A DNA stretch of 64,000 nucleotides, from positions 53,266 through 117,265 of the IMG/VR virus record IMGVR_UViG_3300037346_000623; one strand, given 5' to 3'. The notes below the pieces were generated by a model. It saw only the letters and a program-made list of their open reading frames with translations, ran no database searches and was not told the origin of the DNA. The stretch is from a virus. Below are positions 41,959 to 42,124 of this stretch, piece by piece; the first letter of the stretch is position 1; every line of letters begins with the position of its first letter. Made by a program: the position numbers and the translations under genes.

Positions 41959-42124
41959 AACGTTCTTAGAGATATTGGGAAGAGAATGCTTAGAAAGGGA
42001 TGCTAATAGTTTTTGCGGGAGTTGAACCCGCGACCTTAAATATTAAAAATTTACGCCCTACCAACTGGGCTAAAAAACGAAGTAACCTTTCAATTTACCA
42101 CTAACCAATATTTCTAAGAACGTT
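41959..42124 (-). ncRNA. Y-like RNA 1: tRNA body with UUA (ochre) anticodon on a long paired stem
   Basis: Outer helix AACGTTCTTAGA / TCTAAGAACGTT (12 bp) plus ATATTGG/CCAATAT (7 bp). There follows a loop with the shared word TAGTGGTAAA opposite CATTCTCTT, then TTGAAAGG/CCTTTC-T-AA. The tRNA body at 42008-42079 has acceptor CGTTTTT/AAAAACT, D arm GCCC-AGTTGGTA-GGGC, anticodon arm TAAAT-TTTTAAT-ATTTA and T arm GCGGG-TTCAACT-CCCGC. The anticodon at 42044-42046 reads TTA, complementary to UAA. The anticodon stem is the same as in RNA 2 (TTG), so it looks like a Gln-derived ochre suppressor body. Confidence 0.75.

What the first reader, a model, noticed from the sequence alone, without database searches (positions are those of the whole stretch)
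42008..42079. Gln-type tRNA body with UUA anticodon (ochre suppressor-like)
Units 1 and 2 have the same anticodon stem (TAAAT/ATTTA) and near-identical acceptors, but loops TTTTGGT (TTG, Gln) and TTTTAAT (TTA, pairs with UAA). Suppressor tRNAs in recoding phages and in ciliates commonly derive from tRNA-Gln. Yet many genes here end in TAA, so constitutive UAA reading would be harmful; either it is used late, is weak, or the RNA is a Ro ligand and not a working tRNA.
Basis: partly seen in the sequence, partly recalled or inferred. Interest (0 to 1): 0.72.

Follow-up and report, generated by a model that had tools for sequence, protein, structure and literature searches.

The report
Phage Y RNA mimicking a tRNA
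What looks like a phage tRNA that would read through UAA stop codons is one of four tandem RNAs of the Ro/Y-RNA family that imitate tRNAs; its stop-reading triplet is not kept in the nearest relatives and the phage uses UAA as its main stop signal, so it is very unlikely to change the genetic code.

Summary
Window 42007-42079 (-) folds as a tRNA (ARAGORN tRNA-Stop(tta); Rfam tRNA 64.7 bits) with loop UUUUAAU; unit 1 has the same anticodon stem with UUUUGGU. Ochre suppression is not supported. The body sits inside a 20-nt inverted repeat as one of four tandem Y-RNA-like units just upstream of a TROVE (Ro) gene. The units share a basal stem with strong covariation (14 distinct stems; 0 of 5000 shuffles), and the same frame occurs beside a Clostridium Ro gene. 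Sister units are circularly permuted, lack an acceptor stem, or lack a tRNA body. The orthologous unit in the nearest relative has UUG. Across the family 19 distinct anticodon-like loops carry 17 triplets; only this one pairs with a stop codon, about what chance gives. UAA ends 79 of 104 long ORFs, and no convincing in-frame UAA was seen in 51 conserved genes. Best reading: a Ro-bound tRNA mimic. The unexpected part: the anticodon loop is the most variable part between near relatives, yet keeps the form of a real tRNA loop and often copies one exactly. That suggests an interchangeable decoy, which is untested.

The parts
41959..42124 (-). Unit 2: complete Y-RNA-like unit (long basal stem, hairpin ending UUACUUCG, unpermuted tRNA body)
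   Evidence: Inverted repeat 41959-41978/42105-42124, 95% complementary; fold -50.2 kcal/mol, z -5.74; orthologue in L009
42007..42079 (-). tRNA-like body of unit 2, anticodon-like triplet UUA (42044-42046)
   Evidence: ARAGORN; Rfam tRNA 64.7 bits
41740..41871 (-). Unit 1: Y-RNA-like unit with unpermuted tRNA body (41770-41842), triplet UUG
   Evidence: ARAGORN, Rfam tRNA 54 bits; stem UUGUAAG.GG/CC.CUUACAA
41575..41732 (-). Unit 0: Y-RNA-like unit with circularly permuted tRNA body (T arm, acceptor, D arm; no anticodon arm)
   Evidence: Rfam YrlA 28.2 bits, under the gathering score of 69; fold z -3.26
41421..41568 (-). Last unit: permuted tRNA body that keeps an anticodon arm (loop CUCAUAA, triplet CAU)
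   Evidence: Rfam tRNA 31.2 bits at 41448-41503; relatives carry other triplets in the same place
41377..41413 (-). Terminator-like hairpin followed by a run of U, after the last unit
   Evidence: Read from the sequence: GGGGTTAGGACGC-CAA-GCGACTTAATCCC then TTTTTT; conserved in L009 and L017
38417..39997 (-). Ro-like (TROVE domain) protein gene, 526 aa
   Evidence: Pfam TROVE 8.2e-10; PDB TROVE chain 9l5y 1.6e-20; conserved D-S-G-S-M motif in the alignment

Best explanation
The UUA 'suppressor' is the tRNA-mimicking domain of a phage-encoded Y RNA, one of four tandem units upstream of the phage's Ro (TROVE) gene. Shown by sequence: the ends of each unit pair into a conserved basal stem, and the domain inside has a tRNA fold. 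Inferred from the known family: the basal stem binds the phage Ro protein, and the tRNA-like domain tethers Ro to, or occupies, a tRNA-binding partner (in Deinococcus the partner is PNPase; in a phage possibly a host tRNA nuclease or tRNA-modifying enzyme). The anticodon-like loop presents the shape of a tRNA loop and does not decode; UUA most simply arose from UUG by two base changes or a loop swap in this lineage.
For: Inverted repeat around the body and stable fold, z -5.74. TROVE gene on the same strand just downstream. Basal stem shared by units of eight contigs with covariation: 111 of 126 cells paired, 0 of 5000 shuffles reach it. Same frame beside the Ro gene of Clostridium tetanomorphum, L153. 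Sister units permuted, without acceptor, or without a tRNA body. UUG in the orthologous unit of L009; unit 2 absent from L017. One UUA among 354 tRNA calls in 89 sequences. 79 of 104 ORFs end in TAA and no convincing in-frame TAA was seen in 51 conserved genes. Anticodon stem +1.4 kcal/mol, weakest of 27 together with unit 1.
Against: The body is an unusually good tRNA by model score (64.7 bits). The change from GG to AA at positions 36-37 keeps the rule of real tRNAs (A36 goes with A37), as a working UUA tRNA would need. Known YrlA is permuted and lacks an anticodon arm; unit 2 is unpermuted and has one, and does not match the Rfam YrlA model. Ro binding and expression were not tested.
Confidence: 0.85

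Rival explanations
1. A working ochre suppressor tRNA: the body is cut out of the Y stem by RNase P and 3' nucleases, gets CCA, is charged, and reads some UAA codons late or weakly, perhaps to disturb host termination and not to recode phage genes.
For: High tRNA score; proper U33 and A37 with A36; T-stem changes between window and L009 are compensatory. Phages with seemingly unused suppressor tRNAs are known (PMC12386605).
Against: UUG in the orthologue and no other UUA in relatives; TAA is the main terminator and no recoded TAA was seen; acceptor mismatch C-U at 1-72; weakest anticodon stem; leader and trailer are paired in the Y stem; sister units cannot be tRNAs.
Confidence: 0.06
2. A dual-purpose RNA: a Y RNA precursor from which unit 1 (UUG) and unit 2 can also be released as tRNAs, unit 1 serving as an extra tRNA-Gln and unit 2 being a recently altered copy.
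For: Units 1 and 2 are unpermuted; UUG with the exact tRNA-Gln loop UUUUGGU recurs in L009, L011, L012 and L017.
Against: A genuine tRNA-Gln(UUG) exists at 47412-47485; unit 1 carries CUU in L009 and the L014 counterpart carries UAG; discriminator and 1-72 positions vary between relatives.
Confidence: 0.06
3. A decaying tRNA or Y RNA copy without function.
For: Unit 2 is absent from L017; acceptor mismatch and weak anticodon stem.
Against: Compensatory T-stem changes, a conserved and covarying basal stem, conserved place beside the Ro gene.
Confidence: 0.03

Closest known systems
Bacterial Y RNA YrlA (Rfam RF02553) with Rsr/Ro60
   Same: Basal stem formed by the 5' and 3' ends, tRNA-like domain with D, T and acceptor arms, gene beside a Ro (TROVE) gene; unit 0 has the same permuted order (PMC8394870)
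   Different: Four tandem units; units 1 and 2 are unpermuted; several bodies have an anticodon arm; basal stem sequence is of the kind seen here and in L153, and no unit reaches the Rfam gathering score
Suppressor tRNAs of phages (CTA, TCA)
   Same: tRNA fold with a stop anticodon in a large phage; several related Ro phages carry a tRNA with anticodon CTA
   Different: Ochre triplet, embedded in a Y stem, not conserved in the nearest relative, no recoded genes; a large survey found no jumbo phage that recodes TAA (PMC13037316)
Phage tRNAs that counter tRNA-cleaving defences (such as PARIS AriB)
   Same: tRNA-shaped phage RNAs that differ in anticodon (PMC12409363 abstract)
   Different: Those are working tRNAs; here the tRNA shape is part of a Y RNA. 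Only an analogy; not tested

Membership tests
Y RNA (Ro ligand), broad sense | Basal stem formed by the two ends of the RNA | tested here: met
   Inverted repeat; folds; covariation in the family
Y RNA (Ro ligand), broad sense | Encoded near a Ro/TROVE gene | tested here: met
   38417-39997 (-), TROVE; same order in L009, L011, L012, L017
Y RNA (Ro ligand), broad sense | Binds the Ro protein | not testable with these tools
   Needs a binding assay
YrlA (Rfam RF02553) | Permuted tRNA-like domain with T arm, acceptor and D arm | tested here: not met
   Not met by unit 2, which is unpermuted; met in order by unit 0 and by the last unit (and sequence)
YrlA (Rfam RF02553) | Reaches the Rfam gathering score of 69 bits | tested here: not met
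   Unit 0 28.2 bits, unit 2 no match; best relative 40.7 bits
Ochre suppressor tRNA | tRNA fold with anticodon UUA | tested here: met
Ochre suppressor tRNA | Anticodon conserved in relatives | tested here: not met
   UUG in L009, unit absent in L017, no other UUA among 354 tRNA calls
Ochre suppressor tRNA | In-frame UAA codons in conserved genes, or UAA avoided as terminator | tested here: not met
   79 of 104 ORFs end in TAA; no convincing internal TAA in 15,476 aligned residues
Ochre suppressor tRNA | Processed, charged and active on UAA | not testable with these tools
   Needs acid gels and a reporter

The most novel reading that the evidence does not exclude
Large phages carry cassettes of Ro-bound tRNA mimics (unpermuted and permuted) whose anticodon loops are exchangeable baits, renewed by loop swaps, that divert or inhibit host tRNA-cleaving defences; the UUA loop is one such variant.
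Probability: 0.25. Interest if true: 0.88.

Novelty: new variant of a known kind. Interest (0 to 1): 0.58.

Why it matters
It removes a candidate for UAA recoding in a phage, which a large survey of jumbo phages did not find (PMC13037316). It shows that tRNA finders can report Y RNAs as tRNAs or suppressors. It also gives a family of Y RNAs in which tRNA mimicry extends to the anticodon arm and varies between near relatives, which makes the open question of what the tRNA-like domain of Y RNAs is for directly testable.

Tried and rejected
UAA recoding: rejected from stop usage and internal stops against a close relative; the few internal stops lie near alignment ends or in short, poor pieces with mixed TAA/TAG/TGA. 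Descent from the phage's own tRNA-Gln: 54% identity. A tRNA intron in the interrupted-looking tRNA halves at 41427-41680: set aside, because the halves pair inside one permuted unit each and the piece between them is the shared Y stem. Rfam YrlA search across the relatives: weak, and 13 of 14 control genomes also ring at E<=1, so not used as proof. Three Y RNA papers of the Wolin laboratory are not held. My automatic parser of anticodon arms misread several permuted units, so those loops were read by eye from the sequences.

Full report
Observation. The body is real: ARAGORN reports tRNA-Stop(tta) at 42006-42080 on the minus strand and the Rfam tRNA model scores 64.7 bits at 42007-42079. The anticodon stem is UAAAU/AUUUA with loop UUUUAAU. 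Unit 1, 237 bases away and 86% identical over 72 nt, has the same stem with loop UUUUGGU. The body is not Gln-like as a whole: it is 54% identical to the phage's own tRNA-Gln at 47412-47485, and its closest matches are the other units of this family.

Surroundings. The window is part of a 117,265-base virus contig with T4-type terminase, DnaB and ClpB-like genes and 27 tRNA calls. The UUA body lies in a 20-nt inverted repeat, and the whole unit folds at -50.2 kcal/mol, z -5.74. Downstream on the same strand lies a Ro-like TROVE protein (Pfam 8e-10; PDB TROVE chain 1.6e-20) with a conserved D-S-G-S-M motif. Between the UUA unit and that gene are three more units with the same kind of stem. Unit 0 and the last unit hold circularly permuted tRNA bodies, in which the T arm and 3' acceptor strand precede the 5' acceptor strand and D arm. 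Unit 0 gives a partial match to Rfam YrlA, 28.2 bits, under the gathering score of 69.

Relatives. Thirteen viral contigs encode near relatives of the TROVE protein, and eighty loci were kept in a wider search. Their units share the pattern [N5]AGU(G/A)G - hairpin ending UUACUUCG - body - C(C/U)CU[N5]. In 14 distinct stems 111 of 126 cells pair, the G-C/A-U switch beside the bulge is perfect (9:5), and none of 5000 shuffles of the 3' strands does as well; relatedness of the units was not corrected for. The same frame encloses a permuted body beside the Ro gene of Clostridium tetanomorphum (L153), which ties the phage units to bacterial Ro-linked Y RNAs. Bodies vary: unpermuted with acceptor, unpermuted without acceptor, permuted without anticodon arm, permuted with anticodon arm, or none.

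The triplet. In the nearest relative, L009 (about 90% identical over this stretch), unit 2 has UUG and unit 1 has CUU; L017 lacks unit 2. The last, permuted unit has CAU in the window, GUA with A33 in L009 and L017, GCA in L011, CUU in L014, UGU in L013. I read 19 distinct loops by eye from the units: 17 triplets, one stop anticodon. With 17 random triplets the chance of at least one stop anticodon is 56%. So the UUA triplet by itself needs no special explanation.

Stop codons. Of 104 non-overlapping ORFs of at least 100 aa on the contig, 79 end in TAA. Against 91 kb of the L009 contig, 51 genes and 15,476 aligned residues show no convincing in-frame TAA. The anticodon stems of units 1 and 2 are the weakest of the 27 calls (+1.4 kcal/mol; the other calls run from -5.9 to +0.4). 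A large survey found no jumbo phage that recodes TAA (PMC13037316).

What remains odd. Between window and L009 the three anticodon loops differ at 11 of 21 sites and the rest of the units at 37 of 429 (Fisher P 1e-6; sites within a loop are not independent if loops are swapped whole). Yet 18 of 19 loops keep U33, and 10 are exact copies of real tRNA loops in these phages against 4.5 expected (33 of 20000 shuffles). This holds in permuted units too, which as transcribed cannot decode. The loops therefore seem to be kept as tRNA look-alikes while their identity changes. Capture from the neighbouring tRNA array, with or without selection for decoys, would give this. The UUA loop itself is not a copy of any real tRNA loop held here. 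The proposal that YrlA could compete for an anticodon nuclease exists for Salmonella (PMC7790460), and TROVE proteins are known from a small subset of jumbo phages (PMC7824862).

Verdict. Unit 2 is a Y-RNA-like Ro ligand with a tRNA-mimicking domain (0.85). A working ochre suppressor is unlikely (0.06). Ro binding, expression and charging are inferred or untested; the decoy idea is a hypothesis (0.25). The triplet rests on one contig; I could not check reads.

Noticed in passing
41421-41568 (-) against L009 4424-4571: In the last, permuted unit the four loop bases 33-36 all differ between window (UCAU) and L009/L017 (AGUA), base-by-base complements, while the other ~140 bases differ at two sites.
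   Followed up: partly
L009 10958; L013 4444; L014 5651; L037 4453; L100 5524: Further Y-RNA-like units with D, anticodon and T arms but almost no acceptor stem, some downstream of the TROVE gene.
   Followed up: partly
L042, L044, L048, L050, L053, L054, L016, L018: Several related TROVE-carrying phages have a tRNA with anticodon CTA (amber) and a strong anticodon stem, outside Y units. Whether they recode TAG was not checked.
   Followed up: no
43178-43250, 43807-43895, 46955-47075, 36300-36480, 33660-33735 (-): Odd tRNA-like pieces in the array that ARAGORN misses: T arms with distant or missing 5' halves, and possible tRNAs with long insertions.
   Followed up: no
42703-43227 (-) and 48444-48869 (-): A YqeY-like protein (8e-31) and a cyclic-phosphate processing receiver-domain protein (3.5e-22) are encoded within the tRNA array, possibly linked to tRNA metabolism or RNA-end repair.
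   Followed up: no
34623-35054 (-): A GIY-YIG (SegE-like) endonuclease gene lies between tRNA genes.
   Followed up: no
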